NCBI GenBank assembly: GCA_015999985.1
Contig: JAECRA010000015.1
Coordinates: forward strand, 1-64,000
Direction of reading: 5' to 3'
Length of the DNA stretch: 64,000 nt
Source of the DNA: Comamonadaceae bacterium
Lineage (GTDB): Bacteria; Pseudomonadota; Gammaproteobacteria; Burkholderiales; Burkholderiaceae_C
Every line of letters begins with the position of its first letter. Position 1 is the first letter of the stretch. The notes under the pieces are model-generated. The model saw nothing but the letters and a program-made list of their open reading frames with translations, had not been told where the DNA came from and searched no databases. The position numbers and the translations under genes were made by a program. Below, in pieces: positions 12,087-37,293 of this stretch.

Positions 12087-13490
12087 TCAGGGTTCTGAGC
12101 CCGACTTTCGAGGGCGGTATTGAAGCATTGATCTCGCAAATTTAGGGTCGACAACGTAGCCCACGTTGTAGCGGCTCCAGGCAGTGATGTGCCGTGGTTC
12201 AAGACCAAAGAACGCACCAGGGGCAAGAGCTACGTTGTCCGTTAACAAGTTTCTAGCGAGCGCCAGCGAATCGGGTGCCCAGGGAAACTCCGCCCACAGA
12301 TAGAGCGTATGGGAGGGTGTGCAGAACAAGTTGGCGCCTAGTCCTGTCAGGACCTTGGTCGCGTGTCGCGTGGCGCGTTCGACCTGGTGCTGCAACTGCG
12401 CCAATTGCCGCGGATACTCGGGCGCGCGCAGCACCGCGTCCACGGTGCGCTCAGCGAACTCCGAGGTGCTGACGTGAACTAGCATCTTCACGTCCGCGAG
12501 ACGCTCTGCGAGGCCGGCGTCGGCCGCGATGAACCCCACGCGCAAGGCGGCTGCTACGGATTTGGTGAAGCTGCCGATGTACACCGTGCGGCGCAGCTGG
12601 TCCAGGCTGCTCAGGCGCGACACCGCCGTCGGCTTGAGATCGGCCACCGCATCATTCTCCACGATGGTCACGCCGTATTTCTCCGCCACTTGCAGCAGGC
12701 GAAACGCCTTGGCTGGCGAGGTGTCCGATCCGGTCGGGTTCTGGCCGACAGACTGGGTGAAAAACACCTTGGCCTTGGTAGTCGCCACCAGGTGCTCAAA
12801 TGCCGCGACGTCAGGCCCGTCAGCCTCCCGTGGCACACCTACCACGATAGTGCCGTGAAGACGCAGCTTGCCGTAGAGCGGGTAATAGCCAGGTTCGTCG
12901 ACGAGAGCGATGTCGCCCGGTCGCATCAGGCAGCGCACCACGATGTCCAATGCCTCGTTGGCGCCAAAGGTCAACACGATCTGGTTGGCTCGCGCCTGGA
13001 TGCTCAAGTTAGCGAGCTTGCGCTCGAGAAGGTCGCGCAGGGGGCGGTAGCCGTACGGGTTGCCATACTGGAACATCGACTCCAGCGCCACGCGCGAGGT
13101 CCGCTGCTGAGCGCGTTCGAGCCGATTGTTGGCCAGCCACTGCCCGGGCGGAATGCCGTGACCCACGGCGAGATGCTCAGGGTCGTTGTTGACCTGCTCG
13201 CGCATCATCCAGACCGAATCCAGCGCGCGATCTAGCGAGCTGGGCTCGTCCTCAGCTGGTCGTTCGGTGGAGTGCTGGCTGACGTAGTAGCCCGAGCCAC
13301 GCCGTGCCTCCACGTGCCCGTCGGCAATCAGCCGCTCGTAGGCATCAACAATGGTGTTCTTCGAGAAACCGTACCGCTCTACCAGACGGCGGATGGAGGG
13401 CAGCCTTTCGCCGATCGCGTAGGCGCCTTCTGTGATCTGCTTGCGTAAGTCAGCGGCCACCTGGTTTGCATTCGAGAGATTCGGTTTCAT
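12087..13490 (-). CDS. MocR/PdxR-type GntR regulator with aminotransferase domain
   Basis: A 467-residue fusion. Residues 1-75 are a GntR winged helix ([23 protein letters not shown]). Residues about 105-460 are a fold-type I aminotransferase-like domain that keeps NPTG (251-254), Asp280 and the PLP Schiff-base Lys310 (GSFTKS). MocR regulators sense PLP or amino compounds, and other ligands in some cases, and typically control divergent genes. Here the divergent operon begins with HMG-CoA reductase, so it is the likely regulator of that operon. Confidence 0.92.
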
Positions 13491-13665
13491 TGGTGTTTTC
13501 CCTGCCTTGCGTGCCTACGTCCTGTTGCTTTGTGACGAGACAGCGGGGCCTGAATTGTCTTCAGACAGTTGTGGGTGTGTCCGGTCGAACTGTGCCTATT
13601 GGGACCCAGACGGTTTCCTTATAGTCGACGCCACTGTATCCCAACTGTTTCAGGAACACACGCAC
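13491..13665. promoter_or_regulatory. divergent promoter region between mocR gene and HMGR operon
   Basis: This 175-bp stretch holds several copies of the same half-site: ACAGTT at 13565-13570, AACTGT at 13588-13593, ACTGT at 13633-13637 and AACTGT at 13643-13648. A TGTCT-2-AGACA inverted repeat lies just to the left. Repeated half-sites are typical of MocR operators. The match is by eye and no binding is shown. Confidence 0.4.
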
Positions 13666-14949
13666 ATGCTGATCGACTCGACCCTCCCGGGTTTCCGCTC
13701 CCTGACACCGTCGCAAAGGCTGGGAGCCATCGCACAGAAGGCTGGTCTGACGGCGGCCGAGGTGGCGTCCATTGCCTCGCCCGGCGCGCTGTCGATTGGC
13801 ACAGCGGACGGCATGATCGAGAACGTGATCGGTACCTATGAATTGCCACTGGCAGTGGCTGGTTACTTCCAGCTCAATGGCAAGGACGTGCTCGTGCCCA
13901 TGGTGGTGGAAGAGCCTTCAGTGGTGGCGGCGGCCTCTTTCATGGCCAAACTGGTTCGCGAGAACGGTGGCTTTCAGACCTCCAGTTCGGGGCCTCTGAT
14001 GCGGGCGCAGGTGCAGGTGATCGGTGTGTCCGATCCGCTTGGCGCGCGCCAGACCATTCTGCGTCACCGTCAGGAAATTATCGAGATAGCGAACAGCCGC
14101 GACAAGGTTCTTGTCGGTCTGGGTGGCGGTTGCCGCGACGTCGAGGTGCACGTGTTTCCCGACACTCCGCGCGGCCCGATGGTGGTGGCACACCTGATTG
14201 TCGACGTGCGAGACGCCATGGGCGCAAACACCGTGAACACGATGGCCGAAGCCGTGGCCGGCCACATCGAAAAGATCACTGGCGGCGAGGTGCGCCTGCG
14301 CATCCTATCCAACCTGGCTGACCTGCGTGTGGCACGCGCTAGCGTGCGCATTCCGGAGGCGACGCTGGTAACCAAGGACTTCGCGGGCGATCGCGTGGTG
14401 GATGGCATTCTGGACGCCTACACCTTTGCGGCGGTGGACCCGTACCGTGCCGCTACCCATAACAAGGGCATCATGAACGGTATTGATCCCGTGGTCGTTG
14501 CGACGGGCAATGACTGGCGTGCGGTGGAGGCGGGTGCGCACGCCTATGCCTGCCGCAGCGGCCGCTACACCTCGCTGACCTGCTGGGAACGTGCCAACAA
14601 CGGTGATCTGGTGGGCTCTATCGAGCTGCCGATGCCTGTTGGTCTGGTTGGTGGAGCCACCAAGACCCACCCCTTGGCACGGCTCGCACTCAAGATCATG
14701 AATGTGCGGAGCGCGCAAGAGTTGGGCGAGGTGATAGCCGCGGTAGGACTGGCCCAGAACATGGCCGCCATGCGCGCACTGGCCACCGAGGGCATTCAGC
14801 GCGGACATATGGCCTTGCACGCCCGTAACATCGCGCTCGCCGCAGGCGCAGTCGGCGAAGAGGTCGACTGGGTGGCACAGCGCATGGCGGCCGACCGTGA
14901 CGTTCGCATGGATTTCGCGGTCAAGATCCTTGCCGAAAAGCGGCGCTAA
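13666..14949 (+). CDS. mvaA: class II (degradative) hydroxymethylglutaryl-CoA reductase
   Basis: A 427-residue enzyme, nearly the same length as the 428-residue Pseudomonas mevalonii HMG-CoA reductase. The catalytic residues fall at the same numbers as in that enzyme: Glu83 (VVEEPS), Lys267 (THNKG), Asp283 (GNDW) and His381 (RGHMALHA). [15 protein letters not shown] is the family signature. Class II enzymes run mainly in the oxidative direction, turning mevalonate, CoA and two NAD(P)+ into HMG-CoA. The ATG at 13666 gives the right length; the frame open back to 13432 overlaps the mocR gene. It is the first gene of an operon with an ABC importer, a CoA-transferase and an enoyl-CoA hydratase. 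Confidence 0.96.
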
Positions 14950-15019
14950 TGCATCGCGCCCCGAGACAGCCCACGGGCAGTCTCGACCCGGATTTCAACT
15001 ATCAGAAGGAGACATCGCA

Positions 15020-16321
15020 ATGAAACGTATCACCAGATTCCTCACCGCAAGCCTCGGCTTGTTGACGTTGGCGACCGCGTCGCTCGCGCAGACCGCCAAG
15101 CCAGCCGAGCTCAAGCTCGGCATGAGCACCTTCATGACCGGACCTGCCTCGGTTTTGGGTGCTCCAGCGAAGGTCGCGGCCGACATGTGGATCGAAGACT
15201 TCAACGCCGCTGGCGGCATTGATGGCGTTAAGCTTAAGCCGACCTGGATCGACGAAGGGCAGGGTGCGGATAAGTTTCTCTCGGAATACCGCCGTCTGGC
15301 CCAGGAACCGGGCGAGAAACTGATGCTTTCGGCGATCTCAAGTGGTTATTGCAACGCTCTGGCTCCTGTGGCCGAAGATCTGAAGATCATCAACATCCTG
15401 TGGGAGTGTTCCACCGAGAAGGTGCTCGAGGAACGCCGCTATAAGTACGTGTTCCGCACCGGCCCCAATGCCACCATGGAGATGGTCGCCGCTGTGCTGC
15501 ATCTGCTGAAGGTCAAGCCGGACTTCAAGACCATTGCGGTGGTGAACCAGGACTACGCCTGGGGGCGCGACTCCTGGGAAATATTCCGTCACACGCTCGC
15601 AGCGCTTCGCCCTGACGTGAAGGTGGTGGCTGAAATGTTCCCCAAGTTTGGCGCGCCCGATTTCTCCACCGAAGTGACGCGTCTGCAGGCGCTGCGGCCC
15701 GATGTGGTGCTCACCACCGCCTGGGGGGGTGACCTCGATACCTTCCTGCGCCAGGCTTCCCAGCGAGGTCTGCTTAAGACCTCGCAGTTCGTTCTGCCAC
15801 TCGCTGACTCTTCCCTGGAGCGGCTCGGCAAGGCCGTCCCACCGGGTGTCATTGTCGGATTCGTGGGTGATGGTTACTTTGCCGACCCCGAGTTCCAGAA
15901 CGACCCTGAAGCCAAGGCCTTCGTCCAGCGCTTCAAAGCACGCACCGGTGCGTACCCTAACTTCGCCGTTTACCACATGATTCAGGCGTTGAAAGCAGCC
16001 ACCGGCGCTTACCGTCAGGCCATTGCTGACAATAAGGGTAAGTGGCCCAGCACCGAACAGGTGGTGACGGCACTGCAGAAGCTGGAGTACCGCGGTTTGT
16101 CGCGCCCAATCCGGTTGCGCGAGGACGGCCAAGCCTTGCAAGGACAACTGTATGGCGTCACCCGCAATGATCCAGGGTATCCGTTCCCCATCGTTGGTGA
16201 CCTCGTCTATTACCCCGCCGAGATCGCCACCGCGCCGGTGGGGCAGAAGTCGGTCGATTGGGTCAAGACGCTCAAACCTTCGCTGATCGGCCATCCGCAG
16301 ATCAAGCGCGTGGGCCGCTGA
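15020..16321 (+). CDS. branched-chain-amino-acid-type ABC transporter, substrate-binding protein
   Basis: A 433-residue periplasmic protein. The signal peptide is residues 1-23 (MKRITRF..., cut after SLAQ). The mature part is a type I periplasmic binding fold of the LivJ/LivK family (ELKLGMSTFMTGPASVLGAPAK). AGAAGGAGA-type spacing is replaced by a good AAGGAG site before the ATG at 15020. It sits directly after the HMG-CoA reductase gene and before two permease and two ATPase genes, so its ligand is probably mevalonate or a related hydroxy acid rather than an amino acid. That ligand is inferred from context. Confidence 0.9.
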   Translation: MKRITRFLTASLGLLTLATASLAQTAKPAELKLGMSTFMTGPASVLGAPAKVAADMWIEDFNAAGGIDGVKLKPTWIDEGQGADKFLSEYRRLAQEPGEKLMLSAISSGYCNALAPVAEDLKIINILWECSTEKVLEERRYKYVFRTGPNATMEMVAAVLHLLKVKPDFKTIAVVNQDYAWGRDSWEIFRHTLAALRPDVKVVAEMFPKFGAPDFSTEVTRLQALRPDVVLTTAWGGDLDTFLRQASQRGLLKTSQFVLPLADSSLERLGKAVPPGVIVGFVGDGYFADPEFQNDPEAKAFVQRFKARTGAYPNFAVYHMIQALKAATGAYRQAIADNKGKWPSTEQVVTALQKLEYRGLSRPIRLREDGQALQGQLYGVTRNDPGYPFPIVGDLVYYPAEIATAPVGQKSVDWVKTLKPSLIGHPQIKRVGR

Positions 16322-16345
16322 GGAACGGTCGCCGCCGCACTGTCG

Positions 16346-17251
16346 ATGAACCTGAATCTGATCCTGCTGGCCGTGGTGGACGGACTGTCCTATGCGGGCC
16401 TTTTGTTCCTCATTTCACTGGGCCTCACTCTGATCTGCGGCGTCTTTGGCGTGATCAATGTGGCGCACGGTAGTCTATATGCCATAGGCGGCTACAGCGC
16501 CGCGAGCCTCGTGGCATGGTTGATGCCGCACGCGCCGCCTACATGGGTGCTTGTGGCGGCGCTCTTCGTGTCGTCGGTCGCGGTTGGCGCTGCACTGGGT
16601 GCCTTGCTAGAACGCGGATTGCTGCGGCATTTCCAGGACCGGGACCCGGTGCTGCAACTGCTCGTGACATTCGGTGCCTTCATGGTGCTGGAGGATGTGC
16701 AGCGCATGGTGTGGGGCGCCACGCCAGTGAACTCGGGGGAGATCGCCTCCCGCCTTGGCACCTCGGATCTGCTGGGCGTTACCTTCATGAACTATCAGCT
16801 TATGCTGGTGCCGGCGGTGGCATTGCTGGCCTATGTAGGGTTGCAATTCCTGCTTCGCCACTCTGTGGCGGGAAAACAGATTGTGGCCATCATCCACCAC
16901 CGCGAAGTGGCCGCGTCGCTAGGCATCAACGCGGCGCGCGTGGGCACACTCACCTTTGCGTTGGCGGGCATCCTAGGCGCGTTGGGCGGGGCACTCTCGG
17001 TGCCCATGACATCGTTCGTGCCGGGTCTCGGAGCCGAAATGATTGTCACCTCCTTCGCGGTGATCGCCACCGCAGGCCTGGGCCAGATCACCGGTGCCCT
17101 GGTAGCTGCGGTGCTGATTGGCCTGGCCCGTTCAATGGCGGTCTATACCCTGCCGGAGCTTGAAGTCGTGATGCCCTATCTCATGATGGTGCTGGTGCTG
17201 CTGATCCGCCCGAATGGTCTCTTTACGGTCGCGGCGGCACGGAGAATCTGA
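16346..17251 (+). CDS. ABC transporter permease, LivH type
   Basis: A 301-residue inner-membrane permease with about eight helices (LSYAGLLFLISLGLTLICGVFGVINVAHG at the N-terminus is the LivH signature region, read here as a landmark only in its first part). The stop codon TGA overlaps the next ATG by one base, showing translational coupling with the LivM-type gene. It forms the transmembrane dimer of the importer. Confidence 0.9.
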   Translation: MNLNLILLAVVDGLSYAGLLFLISLGLTLICGVFGVINVAHGSLYAIGGYSAASLVAWLMPHAPPTWVLVAALFVSSVAVGAALGALLERGLLRHFQDRDPVLQLLVTFGAFMVLEDVQRMVWGATPVNSGEIASRLGTSDLLGVTFMNYQLMLVPAVALLAYVGLQFLLRHSVAGKQIVAIIHHREVAASLGINAARVGTLTFALAGILGALGGALSVPMTSFVPGLGAEMIVTSFAVIATAGLGQITGALVAAVLIGLARSMAVYTLPELEVVMPYLMMVLVLLIRPNGLFTVAAARRI

Positions 17252-18201
17252 TGAAAATTTCCAGATTTCTCCTTCTGTTGTGCGCGGCGGCCACGGCTCT
17301 GTTGGCTGTCGGTGTCACGCTGCCCTGGGTCCGCGTGCCCGTGATCTCGTTCTTGAGCTATGGCATAGCCGCCCTGGGCCTGACTGTGCTCATGCGCGCC
17401 GGCCAGGTTTCGTTCGGCCACGCCATGTACGCCGCCATTGGCGGCTACGGGGTCGCTTTCGCCGGTCGCGCCTATCCGTCATTGGATGCTGTGTTCATTG
17501 TGCTCGGAGGGGTGCTCGCCAGTGTGCTGGCGGGATCGCTGGCTGCGGCGTTCCTGTCCCGCTACCGGGGCATCTTCTTCGGCATGCTCAATCTGGGCAT
17601 TTCGATGGTGCTGTTCGCCCTGGCCGGCAAGCTTTACCACTGGACCGGCGGCACAGATGGTCTGCGGTTCGAGCGCCCTCCGGTCCTCGGCATGGCGCTG
17701 GATCGGGGCACTTTCGAGTTGACCGTGTTGCTGATGGCGCTCGGTCTGGCGATCGTCGTGGCCTGGCTGGTACAGCGCTACTTTGCCTCCGCAGCTGGCC
17801 AGATGATGGCGGCCATCAAAACCAACGAGACGCGTCTGGAGTACATCGGCATCTCGGCACGTCGATCGCTGGCGGAGGGGTATGTCATCTCGTCAGCCCT
17901 GGTGGGTCTCTCAGGCTCGTTGATGGCGCTGGTACAGGGCCTGGTCACACCCGAGAGCGGCTACTGGATCCGCTCGGGCGAGTACGTGTTCATCGCTATT
18001 CTTGGTGGCGCGGGCCATGCATTGGGCGCCTTTCTTGGGGCCGGCGTGTTTGAAGTCATCAAACTGGTCGCTGCCGCCTACTTCACTAACGCCTGGCAGA
18101 TTCTGCTCGGCACCACGCTCATCGCTGTGATCTTCTTCGCCCCACGCGGAATGATGGGTTGGATTCAGCGCGACCCCGCGCAACGGGAGCGCAAACCATG
18201 A
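17251..18201 (+). CDS. ABC transporter permease, LivM type
   Basis: A 316-residue membrane protein of the LivM family; residues 60-90 carry the GQVSFGHAMYAAIGGYG signature. It pairs with the LivH-type permease. Its end overlaps the following ATPase gene in an ATGA. Confidence 0.9.
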   Translation: MKISRFLLLLCAAATALLAVGVTLPWVRVPVISFLSYGIAALGLTVLMRAGQVSFGHAMYAAIGGYGVAFAGRAYPSLDAVFIVLGGVLASVLAGSLAAAFLSRYRGIFFGMLNLGISMVLFALAGKLYHWTGGTDGLRFERPPVLGMALDRGTFELTVLLMALGLAIVVAWLVQRYFASAAGQMMAAIKTNETRLEYIGISARRSLAEGYVISSALVGLSGSLMALVQGLVTPESGYWIRSGEYVFIAILGGAGHALGAFLGAGVFEVIKLVAAAYFTNAWQILLGTTLIAVIFFAPRGMMGWIQRDPAQRERKP

Positions 18202-18962
18202 GACAGAATGCACTATCCGGCGAACCGCTGCTGCACACCACCGGCCTGACACTGAAGTTCGGCGGCGTCACGGCAGCCGACGACATCGATTTCGAGTTGC
18301 GGCGTGGTGAACGGCTTGCGGTGATCGGCGCCAATGGCGCCGGTAAGACCACCTTCATCAACATCTGCACCGGGTACCTGAAACCCTCGAGTGGCCGTAT
18401 TTTCTTCGGTGACACCGACGTCACCGGTATGGGGCCGCGCCGGATCGTGCAGCTGGGAGTGGGGCGTTCGTTCCAACTGCCCCAGCTGTTTCTGGAGCAC
18501 ACGGTGCAGGAGTGCCTTCAACTGGCCAGTGCTGGTCGGCAGGGCCGGCTCTCGCGCTTCGCGCCCCTGGCGGCCACGGCTGACCTGCGGGCGGTAGCGG
18601 CGATGCTCGAGCTGGTTGAGCTTGAGCACTGCGCCGCCCACCCCGTGACCGTGTTGCCCGAAGGGCATCGCAAGCTGTTGGATGTGGCGATCGCACTGAT
18701 GCTGCAGCCGAAGCTGGTCATCATGGACGAGCCCACCAGCGGTGTCGCCTCGGAGGACAAACATTCCGTTATGGGGACCATCATGCGTGCACTCCAGGAG
18801 CGCGATGTTACGGCCTGGTTCGTGGAGCACGACGTCGACATCGTTCTGCAGTACGCCACCCGCGTGGCAGCCTGGATCGATGGCCGCATTGCAGCTGACG
18901 GTGCCCCGGGAGATGTCTTCGCAGATCCCGTCATCCGGCGTGAAGTTCTGGGGGAGCGATGA
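18198..18962 (+). CDS. ABC transporter ATP-binding protein, LivG type
   Basis: A 254-residue nucleotide-binding subunit. Walker A is GANGAGKTT, the Q-loop is in GRSFQLPQLF and Walker B is LVIMDEPTSG with a later switch His (VEHDVD). The ABC signature is unusual: where LivG proteins have LSYGQQR or similar, this one has LPEGHRK. That is a real departure from consensus and may lower activity at one ATP site. It starts in an ATGA overlap with the LivM-type gene. Confidence 0.9.
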   Translation: MRQNALSGEPLLHTTGLTLKFGGVTAADDIDFELRRGERLAVIGANGAGKTTFINICTGYLKPSSGRIFFGDTDVTGMGPRRIVQLGVGRSFQLPQLFLEHTVQECLQLASAGRQGRLSRFAPLAATADLRAVAAMLELVELEHCAAHPVTVLPEGHRKLLDVAIALMLQPKLVIMDEPTSGVASEDKHSVMGTIMRALQERDVTAWFVEHDVDIVLQYATRVAAWIDGRIAADGAPGDVFADPVIRREVLGER

Positions 18963-19696
18963 AGCTTGTGATCGAATCACTGAACGTCGACTTGGCGGGC
19001 CACGCGGTTCTCCGCGATGTCAACGTGACTCTGGACGCCAGGCAGACCATAGCCGTGGTCGGGCGCAACGGTGCCGGCAAGACAACGCTGCTGCGCGCGC
19101 TCATGGGGCTGGTGCTGCCCTGTTCTGGGCGCCTGCTCCTTGATGGCGTGGACATCACCACGCACCCCGCGCACCAGCGTGCCTCGTTGGGCTTTGGTTA
19201 TGCGCCAGAGGATCGAGTCATTTTTCCTACCCTGACGGTGAGGGAAAACGTGACGTTGCCCTGCGATGTGCTACGGGTGGCGCCGGCCGAGATTGACCGA
19301 CGGATGGAAGCCGTGCTCGCCGTCGTACCCCAGCTCGAATCCCTGCTGTCACGCTCGGGCGCGGCGCTCTCAGGTGGGCAAGGGAAGATCGTCGCACTGG
19401 CACGCGCACTCATGGTGGGCACGCGTTTCGTCCTGCTGGACGAGCCTTTTCAGGGCTTGGCGCCGGCGCTGGCGCGACAGTACGGAGACTCGCTCAAGGC
19501 ACTTCGTAACACACGACCCGAGCTGTGCGTGGTGGTGACTGAGTCGAACGTCGCGCTGCTTGACGGGGTGCAGAGCTGCACGCTTCACATCGAGCGTGGC
19601 AGGGTCGCCGTGCTTCAGCCGGACGGGGCTGCTCAGGCACATTCGCCCTTGGCCTCCGCAGAAAATTTGAACGGAGAGTCTATTCATGGTAGCTGA
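18959..19696 (+). CDS. ABC transporter ATP-binding protein, LivF type
   Basis: A 245-residue nucleotide-binding subunit with Walker A GRNGAGKTT, signature LSGGQGKIVALARAL and Walker B VLLDEPFQGLAP. It completes the heterodimeric ATPase with the LivG-type protein. It overlaps the previous gene by ATGA and the following CoA-transferase gene by 11 bp. Confidence 0.9.
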   Translation: MKLVIESLNVDLAGHAVLRDVNVTLDARQTIAVVGRNGAGKTTLLRALMGLVLPCSGRLLLDGVDITTHPAHQRASLGFGYAPEDRVIFPTLTVRENVTLPCDVLRVAPAEIDRRMEAVLAVVPQLESLLSRSGAALSGGQGKIVALARALMVGTRFVLLDEPFQGLAPALARQYGDSLKALRNTRPELCVVVTESNVALLDGVQSCTLHIERGRVAVLQPDGAAQAHSPLASAENLNGESIHGS

Positions 19697-20915
19697 CCTG
19701 AACGCCCTGCCCACCCGTGAGGGGCCGTTGAAAGGGGTGATCGTCCTGGACCTCACCCGCGTGGTGGCCGGGCCATACTGCACCATGATGCTTGCCGACC
19801 TTGGGGCCATAGTCATCAAGATCGAGAACCCCAACGACCCGGATTACGTGCGCGGCTTCCCGCCCATGGTGAGCGCCGGCGACGAGGAGCGTAGCGGATT
19901 CTTTGCCCAGTACAACCGGCACAAGTTTGGCATCACGCTTGACCTGAAGGCGCCAGAGGGGCGGGATCTGTTTCTCCAACTGGTGGAGCGTGCTGATATT
20001 CTGGTCGAAAACTTCAGGCCCGGCACCATGCAGAAGCTGGGGCTGGATTTCGAGACACTGCACGCGGTGAATCCGCGCATGGTGTTCACTGCAATCAGCG
20101 GCTTCGGCCAGACTGGCCCGCACGCCTCGCGCCCTGCGTTCGACAACAGTGCTCAGGCCGCGGGTGGCCTTTGGTCCATGAACGGCGCGCCTGGCGAGCC
20201 AATGCGCGTGGGAACCATCATCGGCGACCTTGCCGCCTCGCTGTACGCTGCCTTTGGAACGTTGGCCGCGCTGCGCCAGGCTGATGCTCAAGGCTTGGGC
20301 CAATTGGTTGATATTTCCCAGCAGGACTCGGTCTTCACGCTGACCGAGAATGCGGTGGTGAATTACACGGCTGCGGGCAAGGTGGCGGAGCCATTGGGCA
20401 ACGACCATCCTTTCGTGCGACCCTACGGGCGGTATGCCTGCCGTGATGGCCATGTGTTCTTCGGCGCTTACACCGACAAGTTCTGGCATGAAGCCTGCCA
20501 TGCATTCGGAAATCCCGAATTCGCGGTCGATCCGGAAATCGACTCGATGGAGAAACGGTTTTCGCCCGATGTGTACGAAGGCCGTGTGCGGCCAATCGTA
20601 AACGCCTGGTGTGCCAGCCGCACCAAGCAGGAACTGGAAGACCTTGCCGCCGACCGTTTCCCCATGACACCCATCAAGGACATTGCCGAGGTTGTGGCTG
20701 ACCCGCACATGGCCGCGCGCCGCATGATCCGTGCGGTCGACTATGGCGCGACGCAGGCGCAGGTATTCGGCTCGGCGGTGCACTTGTCGTCGCTGACGGC
20801 TCAGGACGGGGCAAGGGCCCCCCTCGTGGGTGAACACAATGAGCTGGTTTACGCGCATTGGCTGGCGTTGGAGGCCGGTCACATGGAGCGGCTGCGCGCC
20901 CACGGAGTGATTTGA
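19686..20915 (+). CDS. family III (CaiB/BaiF) CoA-transferase
   Basis: A 409-residue cytoplasmic enzyme. The N-terminal LDLTRVVAGPYCTMMLADLGA is the CaiB/BaiF hallmark; Asp181 (IIGDLAA) aligns with the catalytic Asp of formyl-CoA transferase. These enzymes move CoA between carboxylic acids through an aspartyl-CoA intermediate. The family includes human SUGCT, which uses succinyl-CoA with glutarate or hydroxymethylglutarate. Next to an HMG-CoA reductase, HMG, mevalonate or 3-methylglutaconate are reasonable substrates, but this is inference. Confidence 0.92.
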   Translation: MVADLNALPTREGPLKGVIVLDLTRVVAGPYCTMMLADLGAIVIKIENPNDPDYVRGFPPMVSAGDEERSGFFAQYNRHKFGITLDLKAPEGRDLFLQLVERADILVENFRPGTMQKLGLDFETLHAVNPRMVFTAISGFGQTGPHASRPAFDNSAQAAGGLWSMNGAPGEPMRVGTIIGDLAASLYAAFGTLAALRQADAQGLGQLVDISQQDSVFTLTENAVVNYTAAGKVAEPLGNDHPFVRPYGRYACRDGHVFFGAYTDKFWHEACHAFGNPEFAVDPEIDSMEKRFSPDVYEGRVRPIVNAWCASRTKQELEDLAADRFPMTPIKDIAEVVADPHMAARRMIRAVDYGATQAQVFGSAVHLSSLTAQDGARAPLVGEHNELVYAHWLALEAGHMERLRAHGVI

Positions 20916-20916
20916 A

Positions 20917-21696
20917 ATGGGTATTTCTTACGAAACGATTGACGCGACCGCTGTAATCCGGTTCGACCGGCCAGCGAAGCTCAACGCGCTTACCTTGGCA
21001 ATGTACGAAGATTTGGGTCGAGCATTCGCGCAGGCCGGTCAGGACGACGCTGTGCGAGTCATTGTGCTGACTGGCGCGGGCGAGCGCGCCTTTTGCGTCG
21101 GCGCAGATCTGACCGAATCCATCCCCGCGCTGGCGCGAAACCAAATAGACATCTCGGCCTGGGACGCTGCCCACCTCAAGCACGTGCACATTGACAAGCC
21201 CATCATCGGGGCCATTAACGGTTTGTGCATGGGTGGTGGCTTCGAAATTATGCTGGCGACGGACATGCGCATTGCTGCCGCCACGGCGCAGTTCAGCCTG
21301 CCCGAAGTGTCACTGGGCATCGTGCCCGCCGGTGGAACGCTGGCACGGCTGACGCGCCAGATCGGCTATGCGCACGCCATGGAATTGCTGCTGACCGCAG
21401 GGCGCTTTTCCGCCGCCGACCTGCTGCGCATGGGTGTGCTTAACCAGGTGGTGGAGCCTGAAGAGCTGATGCCCACTACGTTGCGGCTGGCTGACCGGAT
21501 CTCGCGCCTGAGCGCTTCCGCTCTGGCCGTGACCAAGCGGGCGGTACGAGAACTGGCCGATCTACCGCTGGACAGTGCGTTCCGGCACGAGGCAGTGCTA
21601 GGCCAGGCGGCTTTCACTAGCAGCGACGCCCGGCTGGGGTTGGCGGCCTTTGCGCGTGGCGAGCGCATTGATTACCGCACGCTGCCGCAGTCATGA
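20917..21696 (+). CDS. enoyl-CoA hydratase/isomerase family protein
   Basis: A 259-residue crotonase-fold protein. The oxyanion-hole region is FCVGADLTE, and both glutamates needed for hydratase chemistry are present: Glu110 (GGGFEIML) and Glu130 (LPEVSLG). With HMG-CoA reductase as neighbour, a 3-methylglutaconyl-CoA hydratase (forming or using HMG-CoA) or a mevalonyl-CoA dehydratase-type role are the leading ideas. It starts one base after the CoA-transferase stop and ends the operon. Confidence 0.92.
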   Translation: MGISYETIDATAVIRFDRPAKLNALTLAMYEDLGRAFAQAGQDDAVRVIVLTGAGERAFCVGADLTESIPALARNQIDISAWDAAHLKHVHIDKPIIGAINGLCMGGGFEIMLATDMRIAAATAQFSLPEVSLGIVPAGGTLARLTRQIGYAHAMELLLTAGRFSAADLLRMGVLNQVVEPEELMPTTLRLADRISRLSASALAVTKRAVRELADLPLDSAFRHEAVLGQAAFTSSDARLGLAAFARGERIDYRTLPQS

Positions 21697-21707
21697 ACAC
21701 TTGGTGA

Positions 21708-21792
21708 AATCGCTCGCCATTCTCTTCCACAGTGGTAGTGCGTCATCGTGATCTGTGGGCGACATGAAGCCAGTCTTTAACGGAATTCACTG
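21708..21792 (+). repeat. 85-bp direct repeat, copy 1
   Basis: Begins AATCGCTCGC and ends CGGAATTCACTG. It is about 70% identical, with two 1-bp offsets, to copy 2 at 23548-23632 in the same orientation. It lies between the 3' ends of the ECH gene and the GlxA-type gene and includes the last codon and stop of the latter. Confidence 0.6.
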
Positions 21793-22770
21793 GAACTCCG
21801 ATTCACCGGAGGGGTACCTGTCTCGAAAGGTGCGTCTGTAGGAGGAGGGTGAAGTGTGTACCTGATGCGCAAAGTGCTGACGCAAGGACAGTGATGTTCC
21901 GAAGCCTGCTTCAGTCGCGACACGCTCTATGGGCATGTCAGTGGTTTCCAGAAGTTGCTGAGCTTTGCCAATGCGTTCGGCGGCCAGCCATTTGTTCACG
22001 GTGGTGCCGGTCGCCTCGCGAAAGCGCCGGGTGAATGTTCGCCGGCTCATGCGTGCCACGTCGGCCAGCGCGTCTAGCGACAAAGTATCTGAAAGATGCG
22101 CGCGGGCCCATTCCAGCACACCGGGCAAACGGTTCTCGCTGGGCAGGGCAGGTACGGGCTGTTCGATGTACTGGGCTTGCCCGCCCTGGCGATGTGGCGG
22201 CGTCACCAGCATGCGCGCCACGCGGTTGGCCACGTCAGCGCCGTGGCGCAAGCGCACGATGTGCAGGCAGCAGTCAATGGCTGCTACGGTGCCGGCCGAC
22301 GTGATGACTTTGCCATCATCGACATACAACACGTCGGGAAGGAAGATGGTCTTGGGAAAGCGCTGGGCGAAGAGTTCACGGCAGGCCCAGTGGGTGGTGG
22401 CCTGCCGCCCATCCAGCAGACCCGCGTCCCCCAATACAAAGGCACCCAGGCAAAGTCCGACGACATAGGCGCCCTGTGCGTGGGCCTGGCGCAACGCCTC
22501 CGTCAGCGCTGCCGGGGCGGCGATTTCAGGATGGTTCCAGGCAGGTACCACGACGATGTCGGCCCCGACCATCGCGTCCAGACCGCGAGGCACCTCCACA
22601 TCCATTCCCTGATCACATCGCACGCGACCAGGTGTGGGTGTGCAGTATTCGACTTCGTAGGGCGGCAGTCCACTGGGCGCCGGCTTTACGTCGAAGACGA
22701 TGCCGGGAACGGACAGATGGAACAGGCTGACGCCTTCGAAGGCCAGGACAGAGACACGGGTGGGCTGCAT
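21787..22770 (-). CDS. GlxA family transcriptional regulator (DJ-1/PfpI plus AraC HTH)
   Basis: A 327-residue two-domain regulator. Residues 1-190 are a DJ-1/PfpI-like sensory domain with a cysteine in VVGLCLGAFVLG. Residues about 220-320 carry two AraC-type helix-turn-helix motifs (DTLSLDALADVARMSRRTFTRRF and the second near MPIERVATEAGFG). GlxA-type regulators control catabolism of nitrogenous or osmolyte compounds. The divergent neighbour, an isochorismatase-fold hydrolase 191 bp away, is its likely target. Confidence 0.92.
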   Translation of the reverse strand: MQPTRVSVLAFEGVSLFHLSVPGIVFDVKPAPSGLPPYEVEYCTPTPGRVRCDQGMDVEVPRGLDAMVGADIVVVPAWNHPEIAAPAALTEALRQAHAQGAYVVGLCLGAFVLGDAGLLDGRQATTHWACRELFAQRFPKTIFLPDVLYVDDGKVITSAGTVAAIDCCLHIVRLRHGADVANRVARMLVTPPHRQGGQAQYIEQPVPALPSENRLPGVLEWARAHLSDTLSLDALADVARMSRRTFTRRFREATGTTVNKWLAAERIGKAQQLLETTDMPIERVATEAGFGTSLSLRQHFAHQVHTSPSSYRRTFRDRYPSGESEFQ

Positions 22771-32180: not shown

Positions 32181-33164
32181 TTATTCAGCCTTGATACCGG
32201 CCTGTTTGATTACCTTGGCCCACTTTTCGACTTCGACCTTTTGGTAAGCCGCAAGTTGGGTAGGCGTCATTGAAGATGGCTCCATTCCAAAGCCTTTCAG
32301 TCTCGTTTGGATCTCTGGCAGAGCCAGGACTTTCATGACCTCGGCATGCAGGCGATCGATGATGGGCTGAGGCGTGCCCGCAGGTACAAACATGGCTTGC
32401 CAAGACACCATGTCGAAGCCCTTCTGGCCACTTTCGCTGATAGTGGGCACGTCAGGAAAGCCCGGTACCCTCTGGCTGCCAGTGATGGCGATGGGGCGCA
32501 AGCGTCCGCTTTGGATGTGGGGTCCCACGACCAGGCTGGTGTCGAACATCATGTCTATCTGCCCGCCCACCAAGTCCTGCACGGCTGGACCGGAACCTTT
32601 GTAAGGTGCATGGGTGAACTTCACGCCCGACTGGCTGGCCAGAAGCTCCAGAGCCATATGCGGGGAGGTGCCGATGCCGGGAGAGCCCGAGGTCAAGCCG
32701 CCATTCTTGGCTCGGCTGGCCTTCAGCACGTCGTCAAGCGTACGCAGTGGGCCGGACGCAGGCACCACCAACAGCAGAGGGCTCACACCCAGCATCGCGA
32801 CTGGGGAAAACGACTTGACCATGTCGTAGCCGATGGGCGTGCTGTAGAGGCTTCCATTGATAGAGTGCGAACTGATCGTGCCACCGAGGAGGGTGTAGCC
32901 GTCCGCAGGCGCGCGGGAAGCGATGGCCGAGCCCACGCTACCGCCAGCGCCACCCTTGTTGTCAATGACGACCGGCGTGGCCAATGCATTCGACAGGGGC
33001 TGTGCGATCAAACGTGCAAGCGTGTCGGTATTCCCCCCAGGAGGAAAAGGTACAAGGTAGGTGATAGCCTTGCCTGTGGGCCAAGCGCCTTGCGCGAAGG
33101 CGGTCGGACCGGTGCCAGCGACCAGGCTGGCCGCGAGTGCTTGAAGTGCGGTTCTGCGTTGCAT
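32181..33164 (-). CDS. tripartite tricarboxylate transporter substrate-binding protein (Bug family)
   Basis: A 327-residue periplasmic protein. The signal peptide ends about residue 25 (FAQG). The Bug signature ITYLVPFPPGGNTDTLARL follows. An AAGGAG site precedes the ATG. It follows garD by 33 bp in the hexarate operon, so a sugar diacid such as glucarate or galactarate is the likely ligand. No TctA or TctB membrane subunits are seen nearby; Bug proteins are often orphans. Confidence 0.9.
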   Translation of the reverse strand: MQRRTALQALAASLVAGTGPTAFAQGAWPTGKAITYLVPFPPGGNTDTLARLIAQPLSNALATPVVIDNKGGAGGSVGSAIASRAPADGYTLLGGTISSHSINGSLYSTPIGYDMVKSFSPVAMLGVSPLLLVVPASGPLRTLDDVLKASRAKNGGLTSGSPGIGTSPHMALELLASQSGVKFTHAPYKGSGPAVQDLVGGQIDMMFDTSLVVGPHIQSGRLRPIAITGSQRVPGFPDVPTISESGQKGFDMVSWQAMFVPAGTPQPIIDRLHAEVMKVLALPEIQTRLKGFGMEPSSMTPTQLAAYQKVEVEKWAKVIKQAGIKAE

Positions 33165-33197
33165 GTCATGTCTCCTTGTTGGTCGTTTGAAATCAGT

Positions 33198-34754
33198 TCA
33201 GGTCACAGGTGCGGGGTTGAAGAGCACCAGTGCATTGGCAAGCTTCCATTGCTCGGCCCAGGTCTTGCGGCGGCCGCTTGCCACGTCGAGCATCATCTGG
33301 AAAAGCTCCCAGCCTGTCTCCTCGATCGTGGCCTCGCCATCAGCGATGCGGCCCGCGTTCAGATCCATCAGGTCGTGCCAGCGCCGCGCCAGTTCGGTGC
33401 GGGTGGCGACCTTGATCACCGGTACTTCAGCCAAGCCGTAAGGCGTGCCTCGTCCGGTGGTAAATACATGCAAATTCATGCCGGCGGCCAATTGAAGGGT
33501 GCCGCAGATGAAGTCGCTTGCCGGCGTGGCGGCGTAGAGCAGCCCCCGCTGGGTGGCTTTTTCGCCCGGACGCACCACGCCTGAGATGGCGGCAGTGCCC
33601 GACTTCACGATGGAGCCCATCGCCTTCTCCACGATATTGGAGAGGCCCCCCTTCTTGTTACCAGGGGTGGTGTTGGCGCTTCGGTCTACACGGCCTCGAT
33701 CCAGATAGGCGTCATACCATGCCATCTCTCTAATCATCGCTTGCGCCACCTCAGGGGTGCTCGCACGAGCGGTAAGCTGGTCAATGCCGTCCCGGACTTC
33801 CGTGACTTCGCTGAACATGACGGTGGCACCGGCTCGTACCAGCAGGTCCGTGCAGAAGCCGACCGCTGGGTTGGCGGTCACGCCACTGAAGGCGTCGCTT
33901 CCACCGCATTGCACGCCAACCACCAATTCACTGACGGGTACAGGCTCGCGGCGACGGGCGTTGAGACGGGCAAGGTGCACATCGGCCTGGCGCAGGATGG
34001 ATTCGACCATGGACATGAAGCCCACGTGCGTCTCATCTTGCAGGCAAACGACGTCAAGCGGGGTTTCTTCCTTTGTGCGTTCATCCACCAGCGGAATGCT
34101 TCCTGGGGGCAACAGGCGCTCGGGCTGCAGTTTTTCGCAGCCAAGGCTGACCACCATCACCTCGCCCCCGAAGTTAGGGTTCAGGCTGATGTTGCGCAGC
34201 GTGCGGATGGGAATCACCGCGTCCGGCGCGTCTATGGCTACTCCGCAGCCGTAGCTGTGCTCAAGCGCGACCACATCATCCACATGCGGATAGCGCGGCA
34301 GCAACTCTGCCTTGATTCGTTTGACCGCGAAGTCGGTGACGCCGGCTACGCATTGCACCGTCTGTGTGATGGCCAGGATGTTGCGTGTGCCGACTGACCC
34401 GTCAGCGTTGCGGAAACCCTCGAAGGTGTAGCCTTCCAGGGGCGCCATCGGAGGGGGCTTGACGGTGGCTATCGGCAAGCCTTCAAGTGACCGCGCCTCG
34501 GGCATTCGCAGCAAGCGCTCGTGGACCCAGGTGCCGGCCGCGATATCGGTGACTGCATAGCCAATCGGCACGCCGTAACGCAGCACAGCCTCACCGCTGG
34601 CGATCGATTGCAATGCGACTTTGTGCGCCTGTGGCACCTTGTCTATGAGCACGAGTCCGTCATCGAATGCCGTGCCAGCGGGCAGGCCCCCCTCATTGGC
34701 AACGATCGCGACGTTGTCGCGCGGGTCCATGACGATGCGAAGCGGTTTCATCAT
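33198..34754 (-). CDS. garD: galactarate dehydratase
   Basis: A 518-residue enzyme close to E. coli GarD (523). The SAF-like N-terminus (residues 8-95) is followed by the UxaA/GarD core: [29 protein letters not shown] and [12 protein letters not shown] are near-identical to GarD. It dehydrates D-galactarate to 5-keto-4-deoxy-D-glucarate and needs Fe2+. It starts 7 bp after the second glucarate-dehydratase-family gene. Confidence 0.95.
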
Positions 34755-34761
34755 GCAATGG

Positions 34762-36063
34762 TCAGTAGCGCGGCTGCACGCCAGTGAATGAGGGGTCGTA
34801 TTTTTTCATCTGACCCAGGTCGTCGCGCGCACGGATGCCGCATGAAAGATAGTTATCGTGCAGGCGTGCCAGAGCTTCCCGGTCCAAGGTCACGCCGAGG
34901 CCAGGGCCCGTGGGTACTCGCAGGCTGCCTTCATCGAAAGCAAGGCGCCCACCTTCGATTACCTCTTCGTCTTGCCAGGGGTAATGGGTATCGCAGGCAT
35001 AAGTGAGCAGCGGCACGCTCGCACACAGGTGCGTCATCGCCACCAGGCTCACACCCAGGTGCGAGTTGCTGTGCATCGACAGGCCCAGATCGAACGTGCT
35101 GCACAAGGTAGACAAGCGCTGCGTCGCGCGCAGGCCGCCCCAATAGTGGTGGTCGGAAAGCACAATCTTCACCGGACAGCCCATGTCGGCATTGCGGCGG
35201 AACTCGGCAAAGTCAGTCACCACCATGTTGGTGGCAAGCGGGACGTCGCTGGCGCGCGCTACTGCGGCCATGCCTTCCAGGCCAGGGGCGGGGTCTTCGT
35301 AATACTCAAGCACACCACGCAGCTTTTCAACAATGCGCAAGCTGGTCTCCACGGTCCAGTTGGCATTGGGGTCTATGCGAAGGGGAGTGCCGGGAAAAGC
35401 TTTCGCCAGTGCGAGCAGGTGCTCTGCCTCGTCATCCGGGGCGAGCGCACCGGCCTTGAGCTTGATGCTCTTGAAGCCGTAAGCGTCGATCATGCGTTGC
35501 GCCTGTGATACCAGTTGCGTGGAGGTCAAGGCTTCGCCCCAGGGGTCGGCCGGATATCCGGAAGAGGGGGGCGCGTCAATGTGCGTCGCGTACTTGTAGA
35601 AGAGATAGGCAGAGAAGGGCACGCGATCGCGCGCGGCGCCTCCGAGCAGGTCCACCACTGGTGCGTTGGCAAGTTGACCTTGCAGGTCCATCATCGCGAC
35701 CTCAAAGGCGCTCGTGACCTTGGCGACGGTTTTCGATACATGCGTGCCAGGCGCCAGCGACACGTGCGTACCCAAAAATTCCGACGCAGCCACAGCGGGC
35801 CTTACCAAGGCGGCAACACGGGCTTCCATGTCCGAGAGCGCCCAGGGCGAAAGCCCATCCAGGGCGGGGCTTGCCTTGGCCAGCGCCTCCAACATCGACA
35901 GATCGCCGTAGGTTTCGTTGATGCCGACCAGGCCAGAGGCTGTCTCGATTTCTATGATGGCTCGCAGCGCCCAGGGCTCATGGATGCCGGCTGCGTTAAG
36001 CAAGGGAGGGTCGCGGAACGCAATGGGCGTGACGCGGACGTGGCGGATGGCGTGGGAGGTCAT
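34762..36063 (-). CDS. glucarate dehydratase family protein (enolase superfamily)
   Basis: A 433-residue enolase-superfamily protein, a distant paralogue of gudD at 38294. KxK (SIKLKAG), the metal ligands [15 protein letters not shown] and NMVVTDF, and the catalytic His in SMHSNSHLG are all kept, so it should be active. The precise hexarate is unknown; D-glucarate, L-idarate or another diacid is likely. I used the ATG at 36063 with a GGTGGA site; a GTG four codons earlier is possible. It leads the minus operon with garD and the Bug gene. Confidence 0.9.
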
Positions 36064-36257
36064 TCGGCAGTCCACCCCACGAAGCTGGTTGAGTCGGCGA
36101 CAACTGAAGCCGCCAGGCCAAGCCGATAGCTGACGCGCTCGGTATTCTGAGGTCGTAAAGTGCGAGGCTTATTAGAAGCACTGGTAGCGGTCATGTCTCG
36201 TCGGGTTGATGTCTTGAGGCCTTCGGGTAGGCTATTCAAGCGATTCTTTGTTGTCAG

Positions 36258-36268
36258 TTGTCAGACGA
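36258..36268. promoter_or_regulatory. FadR/GntR-type operator
   Basis: TTGTCAGACGA fits the FadR-subfamily consensus TNGTNNNACNA exactly. It lies in the divergent promoter between the minus hexarate operon (36063) and the GntR gene (36294). A second, looser site, AGTTGT-N10-ACAACT at 37196-37217, lies upstream of kdgD. Confidence 0.65.
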
Positions 36269-36293
36269 CTGTTAACGCGATTATCATCAGGGT

Positions 36294-37151
36294 ATGGCAA
36301 CTGTGTCAATGAACGAGACTCCGGATAATCCCGTATCCCCGCCGGGATCGGTGGCGGCGTCGACTGTGGGATCTATTCCTCTGGTGCCTCCGATGCGCAA
36401 ACGCTCGCGGGGCTTGGCGCACGCGGTGGTTGACGATATCGCTCGGCGCATCGATGCTGGCCTGTTGAAGGCTGGCGACAAGTTGCCCACCGAGGCCGAA
36501 TTCATGCAGGCCCACGGCGTAAGCCGCACCGTGGTGCGTGAGGCGCTGTCTCGCCTGCAGGCGGGTGGCCGCGTGGAGACCCATCACGGCATCGGTACTT
36601 TCGTGCTGGAGACCTCTGGGCCTGTGGTGGCTATACGTCTGGAACCTTCTGATCTGGCTAACGCCTCGGAAGTGCTGGCGGTGCTGGAGCTGCGCATCAG
36701 CCTGGAGACTGAGTCGGCTGGCCTGGCTGCGCAGCGCAGGAGCGATGCTCAATTGGCGGCCATGCGCAGCGCACTCGATGCGTTCGAGGCGGGCGTGGCC
36801 GGGCAGGGCGAGACTGTCTCGCACGACTTTCGCTTTCACCAATTGATAGCGCAGGCGACCGGAAATCGGCACTTTGCCGACATCATGGGTCATTTGGGGG
36901 CGGCACTGATTCCGCGCAGTCGGGTGAATTCTCCGCGTCTGGCGCAAGAAGATCCCTCGGTTTACCTGCGTCGCGTGAGCCGTGAGCACGAAGAGATTTA
37001 TGAGGCCGTTGCCCGGCGCGACCCTGATGCCGCCCGGGCGGCCATGCGTCTGCACTTGACGAACAGCCGCGAACGCCTGCGCCGTGCTCAGGCGGCGTTG
37101 GCTGCAAGCTCACTGGCTGGCGAGTCTGCGGCCCGTACGAGCGGCAGTTGA
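36294..37151 (+). CDS. FadR-subfamily GntR regulator
   Basis: A 285-residue regulator: a variable 38-residue N-terminus, a GntR winged helix (LPTEAEFMQAHGVSRTVVREALSRLQ), then an all-helical FCD domain (about 115-255) with the Asp/His metal-site residues typical of hexarate regulators. It sits between the two arms of the hexarate locus and is probably their repressor, autoregulated through the site at 36258. Confidence 0.93.
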   Translation: MATVSMNETPDNPVSPPGSVAASTVGSIPLVPPMRKRSRGLAHAVVDDIARRIDAGLLKAGDKLPTEAEFMQAHGVSRTVVREALSRLQAGGRVETHHGIGTFVLETSGPVVAIRLEPSDLANASEVLAVLELRISLETESAGLAAQRRSDAQLAAMRSALDAFEAGVAGQGETVSHDFRFHQLIAQATGNRHFADIMGHLGAALIPRSRVNSPRLAQEDPSVYLRRVSREHEEIYEAVARRDPDAARAAMRLHLTNSRERLRRAQAALAASSLAGESAARTSGS

Positions 37152-37293
37152 GTATGGTGCTCAGGGTTAATACGAGGGCGCGTCATTTTCATTTAAGTTG
37201 TACGATGACTAACAACTGATTGATCTTTATAGATAGCCAACTGGTCATGTCATTCAACTGGATCCCTACCAACCTCTACCTATTCTTCCGACC

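What the first reader, a model, noticed from the sequence alone, without database searches (positions are those of the whole stretch)
13666..21696. Operon joining degradative HMG-CoA reductase, a Liv-type importer, a CoA-transferase and a crotonase
The class II HMG-CoA reductase has all four catalytic residues at exactly the P. mevalonii numbering, so mevalonate oxidation is likely. The known mva operon supplies HMG-CoA lyase; here there is none, but a family III CoA-transferase and an enoyl-CoA hydratase with both glutamates are in the same overlapping operon, together with a dedicated ABC importer. That suggests a different route: uptake of mevalonate or a C6 diacid, activation by CoA transfer (SUGCT-like), and interconversion with 3-methylglutaconyl-CoA. 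I know of no well-described pathway with this exact set.
Basis: partly seen in the sequence, partly recalled or inferred. Interest (0 to 1): 0.8.

Follow-up and report, generated by a model that had tools for sequence, protein, structure and literature searches.

The report
Mevalonate-oxidising operon with CoA-transferase and hydratase
An eight-gene bacterial operon appears to import a six-carbon acid, perhaps one released from fungal iron carriers, turn it into mevalonate with a CoA-transferase and a hydratase, and burn it through HMG-CoA; the same enzyme set recurs in distantly related bacteria.

Summary
In detail: window 13666-21696 (+) carries eight close-packed genes: class II HMG-CoA reductase (E83, K267, D283, H381), a five-gene Liv-type importer, a family III CoA-transferase (CoAT) and a crotonase with both glutamates. 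A divergent MocR regulator precedes them. The operon lacks HMG-CoA lyase, but the genome encodes one elsewhere.

The set recurs. Close CoAT relatives lie near a class II HMGR in 16 of 17 CoAT-seeded records (the window included), each time with a hydratase: the crotonase (14) or an unrelated hot-dog-type pair (2). In one other family CoAT occurs only with HMGR (8/8 vs 24/191, p=2e-7; 1e-6 without the centre genome). On an HMGR tree the association changed at least 9 times.

Best reading (inferred): CoAT and hydratase turn anhydromevalonate into mevalonate through CoA thioesters, as CaiB/CaiD do for crotonobetaine and carnitine; HMGR then makes HMG-CoA. Anhydromevalonate is the acyl group of fungal fusarinine siderophores. 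Two genomes of that other family carry a hydroxamate-siderophore importer, receptor and fusarinine-esterase-like gene next to, or 10 kb from, the cluster. The window itself has no such genes.

The parts
12087..13490 (-). MocR-type (GntR + aminotransferase-like) regulator, divergent from the operon
   Evidence: Pfam PF00392 and PF00155; a relative (32-53% identity) lies upstream of HMGR on the opposite strand in 37 of the 45 proteobacterial HMGR loci
13666..14949 (+). class II (degradative) HMG-CoA reductase, 427 aa
   Evidence: PF00368 377 bits; TIGR00532 416 bits over cut-off 260; E83 K267 D283 H381
15017..16321 (+). Liv-type periplasmic binding protein
   Evidence: PF13458 202 bits; 81% identical copy near CoAT-ECH-HMGR in L098
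16346..17251 (+). LivH-type permease
   Evidence: PF02653; 80% identical in L098
17251..18201 (+). LivM-type permease
   Evidence: PF02653; 76% identical in L098
18195..18962 (+). LivG-type ATPase
   Evidence: PF00005; 76% identical in L098
18959..19696 (+). LivF-type ATPase
   Evidence: PF00005; 76% identical in L098
19686..20915 (+). family III CoA-transferase (CoAT); proposed anhydromevalonate/mevalonate CoA-transferase
   Evidence: PF02515 393 bits; D153 invariant in 19 aligned sequences; below the cut-off of each of the 7 NCBIfam models it matches
20917..21696 (+). crotonase (ECH) with both catalytic glutamates; proposed anhydromevalonyl-CoA hydratase
   Evidence: PF00378 195 bits; E110 and E130 invariant in 15 aligned sequences
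21787..22770 (-). AraC/FtrA-like regulator, convergent; probably not part of the system
   Evidence: PF01965 and PF12833; no relative found in the other CoAT clusters; one 32% match in L011, which has no CoAT

Best explanation
A catabolic operon for a branched C6 acid that runs through mevalonate. Proposed order: the Liv-type importer takes up anhydromevalonate (5-hydroxy-3-methylpent-2-enoate) and perhaps mevalonate. The family III CoA-transferase makes anhydromevalonyl-CoA. The crotonase hydrates it to mevalonyl-CoA. The transferase passes the CoA on to the next anhydromevalonate and releases mevalonate, as CaiB/CaiD do for crotonobetaine and carnitine (recalled). Class II HMGR oxidises mevalonate with CoA and 2 NAD+ to HMG-CoA, and a lyase encoded elsewhere cleaves that to acetyl-CoA and acetoacetate. 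The likely natural source is the acyl group of fungal hydroxamate siderophores. Shown: gene content, catalytic residues, the HMGR-CoAT-hydratase association, a lyase gene elsewhere. Inferred: every substrate, the direction, CoA recycling and the siderophore source.
For: (1) In G836's family all 8 CoAT+ genomes have HMGR against 24 of 191 without CoAT (p=2.0e-7; 1.2e-6 leaving out G836). In the window's family 4 of 4 against 20 of 196 (p=1.6e-4); counting only class II, 3 of 4 (p=0.005); also leaving out the window's genome, 2 of 3 (p=0.03). (2) In 17 CoAT-seeded records a class II HMGR and a hydratase are in the stretch in 16, a lyase in 12. (3) Two unrelated hydratase types fill the slot: crotonase (14) or a hot-dog-type pair (G016, G774; also L018, L022, L080). 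Tested on L018: one member matches FAS1_DH_region; the other has no Pfam or NCBIfam match but weakly matches itaconyl-CoA hydratase 8khg, 38.6 bits. (4) CoAT presence needs 10 changes on the HMGR tree, 9 forced by supported branches. (5) HMGR uses free mevalonate (recalled), and CoAT plus hydratase would supply it from anhydromevalonate. (6) The idea was noted. Seen later: in G836, on the opposite strand 0.2 kb past HMGR-CoAT-ECH-HMGL, lie FhuB (728 bits, cut-off 554), an FhuD-like protein (180, cut-off 252), an ABC ATPase, an esterase and a TonB siderophore receptor (TIGR01783 294, cut-off 223.5). The esterase matches 11 distinct PDB sequences, most of them named siderophore esterases, among them the triacetylfusarinine C esterase (89 bits; best, 'BES', 101). 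G1141 has a 36-54% identical set 10 kb past its cluster. (7) Five clusters carry an M20 amidohydrolase. (8) Fusarinines are N-acylated by anhydromevalonic acid (PMC8781417, passages).
Against: No biochemistry. The siderophore set lies near the cluster in 2 of 17 CoAT-seeded records, and not at the window; G1018 has only weaker matches (29-36%) about 24 kb or more away. The window genome's own esterase relative sits with genes that look like siderophore synthesis (by eye). Esterase relatives in CoAT+ genomes (4 of 8 against 18 of 191, p=0.006) include G836, the source of the query; without it 3 of 7, p=0.03. The esterase barely matches its only NCBIfam hit (19 bits of 222). The crotonase is not specifically close to fungal SidH (41st of 177 PDB matches, 152 bits; best 203; LiuC 161). 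G090 has CoAT without a class II HMGR: its HMGR is 24% identical to the window's and on another contig. Some ferrichromes carry a glutaconyl-type acyl group, which fits the rival. Relatedness of genomes makes the Fisher p-values too small. Importer relatives (about 60%) occur in G131 and G133, which have no HMGR match.
Confidence: 0.42

Rival explanations
1. Two entries to HMG-CoA: HMGR oxidises mevalonate, while CoAT activates 3-methylglutaconate and the crotonase hydrates it to HMG-CoA. The source could again be fungal, since some ferrichromes carry a glutaconyl-type group.
For: Both branches would meet at HMG-CoA. The CoAT profile scores human succinate-HMG CoA-transferase well (264 bits). 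A glutaconyl-type acyl group is listed for ferrichromes (printed 'transb-ethylglutaconyl' in PMC8781417; methylglutaconyl in ferrichrome A is recalled).
Against: This route does not need HMGR, yet CoAT is tied to HMGR in 16 of 17 and to the lyase in 12 of 17 (that difference alone is not significant, p=0.09). The genome probably has another 3-methylglutaconyl-CoA hydratase (second crotonase in the leucine-like set). No PDB entry labelled as AUH or methylglutaconyl-CoA hydratase is among the best 60 of 177 matches.
Confidence: 0.26
2. CoAT activates free HMG (SUGCT-like) and the crotonase only interconverts HMG-CoA and 3-methylglutaconyl-CoA; the importer carries HMG and mevalonate.
For: Human SUGCT is within about 6% of the best PDB score for the CoAT profile.
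Against: It leaves the hydratase without a needed role, yet a hydratase of one of two unrelated kinds is present in 16 of 17 records. The window CoAT scores 257 bits against the succinate-glutarate CoA-transferase model, cut-off 750.
Confidence: 0.13
3. Plain mevalonate use by HMGR plus importer; CoAT and crotonase serve an unrelated short-chain acid imported by the same transporter.
For: 38 of the 45 proteobacterial HMGR loci have no CoAT in the flank; 25 of these 38 have a TctBA (19) or TRAP (6) importer beside HMGR.
Against: Repeated gain or loss of CoAT on the HMGR tree and the link of CoAT to HMGR in G836's family, with unrelated importers, argue for one pathway.
Confidence: 0.14

Closest known systems
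Pseudomonas mevalonii mevalonate-degradation operon (mvaAB; recalled) and HMGR-TctBA/TRAP operons of Proteobacteria
   Same: class II HMGR with the same catalytic residues; divergent MocR (37 of 45 proteobacterial loci) and often an importer beside HMGR
   Different: no lyase in this operon; adds CoA-transferase and hydratase
CaiB/CaiD carnitine system (recalled)
   Same: family III CoA-transferase plus crotonase acting on a substrate/product pair, allowing CoA recycling
   Different: both proteins far below the Cai models (134 of 413 and 145 of 500 bits); coupled to HMGR
Fungal SidI/SidH anhydromevalonyl-CoA synthesis (recalled; SidH structure 7oeq)
   Same: the proposed chemistry is the reverse: mevalonyl-CoA to anhydromevalonyl-CoA by a crotonase
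   Different: SidH is no closer to this crotonase than many others (152 bits against 203 for the best); activation here would be by CoA transfer
Leucine degradation (liu)
   Same: shares HMG-CoA and the lyase
   Different: separate genes in this genome with their own crotonase (L099); that these are liu genes is inferred
Deferrioxamine-degrading Mesorhizobium loti LU
   Same: a soil bacterium that uses a hydroxamate siderophore as sole carbon source (PMC5805875, whole text)
   Different: that siderophore has no anhydromevalonyl group (recalled); no link to this gene set was tested

Membership tests
Class II (degradative) HMG-CoA reductase | TIGR00532 over cut-off and catalytic E83/K267/D283/H381 | tested here: met
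   416 bits against 260; residues; the P. mevalonii numbering is recalled
mvaAB-type operon | HMG-CoA lyase in the operon | tested here: not met
   none among the ten proteins from 12087 to 22770, nor by tblastn in the window and the 8.5 kb after it; lyase in L099
SUGCT (succinate-glutarate/HMG CoA-transferase) | NF052585 equivalog score | tested here: not met
   257 of 750 bits
Family III CoA-transferase | PF02515 and catalytic aspartate | tested here: met
   393 bits; D153 invariant in 19 and aligned with the matching aspartate of the five PDB matches printed; that this is the catalytic residue is recalled
CaiB/CaiD | equivalog scores to carnitine CoA-transferase and crotonobetainyl-CoA hydratase | tested here: not met
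   133.7 of 413 and 145.4 of 500 bits; works-like only
3-methylglutaconyl-CoA hydratase (LiuC/AUH) | closest relationship to LiuC/AUH enzymes | tested here: inconclusive
   31% to the genome's other crotonase; LiuC structures rank 32nd-33rd and none labelled AUH is in the best 60 of 177 (that 5jbw/5jbx are LiuC is recalled); rank does not exclude the activity
Mesaconate/itaconate CoA-transferase pathways | NF041294 score | tested here: not met
   309 of 700 bits, the best of the 7 NCBIfam models matched
Fungal siderophore catabolism | siderophore uptake or fusarinine esterase genes with the cluster | tested here: inconclusive
   near the cluster in G836 and G1141; not beside the window cluster
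Anhydromevalonyl-CoA hydratase / CoA-transferase | enzyme activity | not testable with these tools
   needs assays

The most novel reading that the evidence does not exclude
A bacterial pathway, not found in print in my searches, by which soil and rhizosphere bacteria eat the acyl groups of fungal hydroxamate siderophores: anhydromevalonate is turned into mevalonate by a CoA-recycling transferase/hydratase pair and oxidised by class II HMGR. In its fullest form (G836, G1141) the neighbourhood would take the siderophore in, cleave its ester and amide bonds and burn the acid.
Probability: 0.37. Interest if true: 0.75.

Novelty: new variant of a known kind. Interest (0 to 1): 0.6.

Why it matters
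Bacterial class II HMGRs of the oxidising kind have mainly been explained by growth on mevalonate, whose natural supply is unclear (recalled). If the proposed route holds, it gives a subset of them a plausible natural substrate, adds a reaction (anhydromevalonate to mevalonate) to bacterial catabolism, and links bacterial carbon metabolism to the destruction of fungal iron carriers. It would also point to an importer and two enzymes for this class of compounds.

Tried and rejected
Considered and rejected: 'no lyase, so another route' (a lyase exists elsewhere); an acyl-CoA dehydrogenase between CoAT and the hot-dog pair in L080/L106 (the protein looks like a TRAP-type binding protein, by eye); SUGCT, mesaconate and carnitine identities for CoAT. 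Profile searches of the PDB did not single out a substrate for CoAT or crotonase. Binding-protein matches in the PDB were weak (best 65 bits). Importers 60-62% identical in G080, G131 and G133 sit with genes that look like aldehyde dehydrogenase and SDR (all three) and alcohol dehydrogenase (G080), by eye; this hints at an alcohol-type cargo but also shows that the importer family is not confined to this system. No structure prediction was run. Seven paper searches showed no title or abstract start about bacterial anhydromevalonate catabolism or this gene set; only open-licence PMC text was searched and some lists were cut (40 of 71, 20 of 1,094, 15 of 39 shown).

Full report
WHAT IS THERE. 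Window 13666-21696 (+) carries eight close-packed genes: class II HMGR, Liv-type binding protein, two permeases, two ATPases, a family III CoA-transferase (CoAT) and a crotonase (ECH), preceded by a divergent MocR regulator. HMGR passes the NCBIfam 'degradative' model and has E83, K267, D283 and H381. ECH keeps both glutamates and CoAT its aspartate. The genome, 79% complete, has one HMGR and nine matches to the broad HMGL-like family. One of these, L099:9428-10336, passes the HMG-CoA lyase model (457 bits, cut-off 246); the others were not tested with it. About 3 kb away, past two genes on the other strand, lies a set that looks like leucine degradation: a biotin carboxylase-type protein (by eye), a crotonase (best model 273 bits, cut-off 350) and a carboxyltransferase (328 of 999 bits). 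The lyase can therefore be supplied in trans.

IS THE SET REAL? HMGR-seeded: 80 HMGR loci were kept of at least 591. By their titles 45 are proteobacterial (L002-L044, L060, L080). CoAT relatives at 60-69% identity lie in the flank of 7 of 80: L010, L018, L022, L030, L040, L060 and L080. All 7 also have a hydratase: ECH in L010, L030, L040 and L060, a hot-dog-type pair in L018, L022 and L080. Of the 38 proteobacterial loci without CoAT, 19 have TctBA and 6 a TRAP set beside HMGR.

CoAT-seeded: searches (4 of 200 genomes; 2 of 399; 5 of 398; 8 of 199; 2 plasmid records) give, without repeats, 17 records: G000 (the window's genome), G016, G090, G116, G335, G774, G641, G836, G859, G1013, G1018, G1067, G1120, G1122, G1141, L110 (Rhizobium plasmid) and L111 (Rhodococcus plasmid). 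The cut was E<=1e-120 for genomes (1e-100 for plasmids), and only the best 4 or 9 candidates per genome were scored, so these are lower bounds. A class II HMGR is in the stretch in 16 of 17, a hydratase in 16 (14 ECH, 2 hot-dog pairs), a lyase in 12 (not G000, G090, G116, G335, G859). Stretch lengths differ (about 21-80 kb). G859 and L030 are the same Tardiphaga locus (equal contig length and layout). The exception, G090, has CoAT without ECH on its 36-kb contig and only a distant HMGR (24% identity) on another contig. L110's CoAT gene is broken in two.

G335 (L098), from another family of the order, keeps the whole importer at 76-81% identity next to CoAT-ECH-HMGR (61, 62, 73%), in a different gene order. 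It also has a second, plain MocR-HMGR-TctBA operon (L152).

BACKGROUND AND TREE. HMGR over cut-off: 32 of 199 genomes in G836's family and 24 of 200 in the window's family. All 8 and all 4 CoAT+ genomes are among them: p=2.0e-7 and 1.6e-4. Leaving out G836: 1.2e-6. In the window's family, counting only class II (G090 negative), 3 of 4, p=0.005; leaving out the window's genome too, 2 of 3, p=0.03. These tests ignore relatedness and assume that equal sampling requests drew the same genomes, which the listed handles bear out. On a tree of 60 HMGRs (21 with and 39 without CoAT; 'without' means not within the fetched flank), the label needs 10 changes, 9 forced by well-supported branches. It is also clustered (0 of 500 shuffles as low for 'with', 1 for 'without'); gains and losses are not told apart. 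G1122's HMGR was not among the rows.

WHICH SUBSTRATE? Sequence does not decide. CoAT profile against the PDB: YfdE 281, 10uh 276, 4ed9 266, human SUGCT 264, CaiB 135 bits. ECH profile: 3rsi 203, EchA19 196, 3-hydroxypropionyl-CoA dehydratase 193, LiuC 161, SidH 152. The argument is by context. A transferase and a hydratase that go with HMGR could most simply make HMGR's substrate, mevalonate; its unsaturated precursor is anhydromevalonate. That idea was written down.

Later finds agree in part. In G836, convergent with the cluster and 0.2 kb past it, lie FhuB, an FhuD-like protein, an ABC ATPase, an esterase and a TonB siderophore receptor. The esterase's PDB matches include BES 101, a putative siderophore-degrading esterase 92, the triacetylfusarinine C esterase 89, enterobactin esterase 84 and EstB 80 bits; NCBIfam gives only a trace of enterochelin esterase (19 of 222 bits). 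G1141 has the same set by tblastn (36-54% identity) 10 kb past its cluster, and G1120 has it on another contig. That G836's family is rhizobial is inferred from the nearest named HMGRs. Esterase relatives at the preset E<=1e-25: 4 of 8 CoAT+ and 18 of 191 CoAT- genomes (p=0.006). That count includes G836, whose esterase was the query; without it 3 of 7, p=0.03; at a threshold chosen afterwards (1e-70), 2 of 7 and 6 of 191, p=0.03. Five clusters (G836, G1141, G1013, G1120, G1018) carry an M20 amidohydrolase (77-84% identical to G836's), a peptide/nickel-type binding protein and a PNPOx-FAD-2Fe2S oxidoreductase; the domain calls were made on G836's and L110's proteins.

Against this: the window cluster has none of these. 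G000's own esterase relative (36%) sits with a permease, ATPase, AMP-ligase and NRPS, i.e. looks like its own siderophore locus (by eye). G774 and G016 have weak esterase matches elsewhere (38 and 37%, the latter with a stop); G116, G335 and G859 have none at 1e-10. For the window I therefore propose uptake of the free acid.

3-METHYLGLUTACONATE. The review (passages) names anhydromevalonic acid as the acyl group of fusarinines and, for ferrichromes, trans- and cis-anhydromevalonyl and a group printed 'transb-ethylglutaconyl'. It is the main rival (0.26).

LITERATURE. Seven searches listed no account of this gene set or of bacterial anhydromevalonate catabolism; most papers were seen as listings only. 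The Burkholderia cenocepacia 'oxidative, cooperative' HMGR paper was seen only as a title in a reference list. Mesorhizobium loti LU uses deferrioxamine B as sole carbon source, so siderophore eating by soil bacteria has precedent.

VERDICT. The operon is real and its enzyme set recurs; HMGR, CoAT and hydratase very likely form one pathway (my estimate 0.8). Anhydromevalonate as the substrate stands at 0.42, the fungal-siderophore source at 0.37.

Noticed in passing
L108:14015-16132; relatives in L040, G1013, G1067, G1122 and L096: A ribose-type ABC permease fused to a strictosidine-synthase/SMP-30-like domain (PF02653 with PF03088/PF08450, tested on L108), near the CoAT; possibly an importer with a built-in lactonase.
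   Followed up: partly
L111:7707-11956: In Rhodococcus pseudokoreensis, genes annotated hydantoinase/oxoprolinase precede CoAT-ECH, divergent from HMGR-HMGL; a cyclic amide may be an upstream substrate.
   Followed up: no
L110:9986-11214: The CoA-transferase gene on a Rhizobium sp. CC-CFT758 plasmid is split in two pieces and carries no annotated feature, while its neighbours are annotated as genes.
   Followed up: no
HMGRs of L060, L107, L111, L118, L120, L122, L127: A deep HMGR branch (53-58% to the window's) has a GAF-type regulator nearby instead of MocR (PucR-type HTH tested on L107). All 7 tree members have CoAT, but 6 of them were found by their CoAT.
   Followed up: partly
G090:C21 (L096) and C231 (L151): A same-family genome has the CoAT with the permease-lactonase-type importer but a very different HMGR elsewhere.
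   Followed up: partly
L167:8303-18410 (own genome, contig C30): What looks like a siderophore locus: permease, ATPase, esterase relative, MFS exporter, AMP-ligase and NRPS (by eye).
   Followed up: no
window 32181-38205: What looks like a sugar-acid catabolic set (Tct-type binding protein, dehydratase, enolase-superfamily member, DHDPS-like aldolase), by eye.
   Followed up: no
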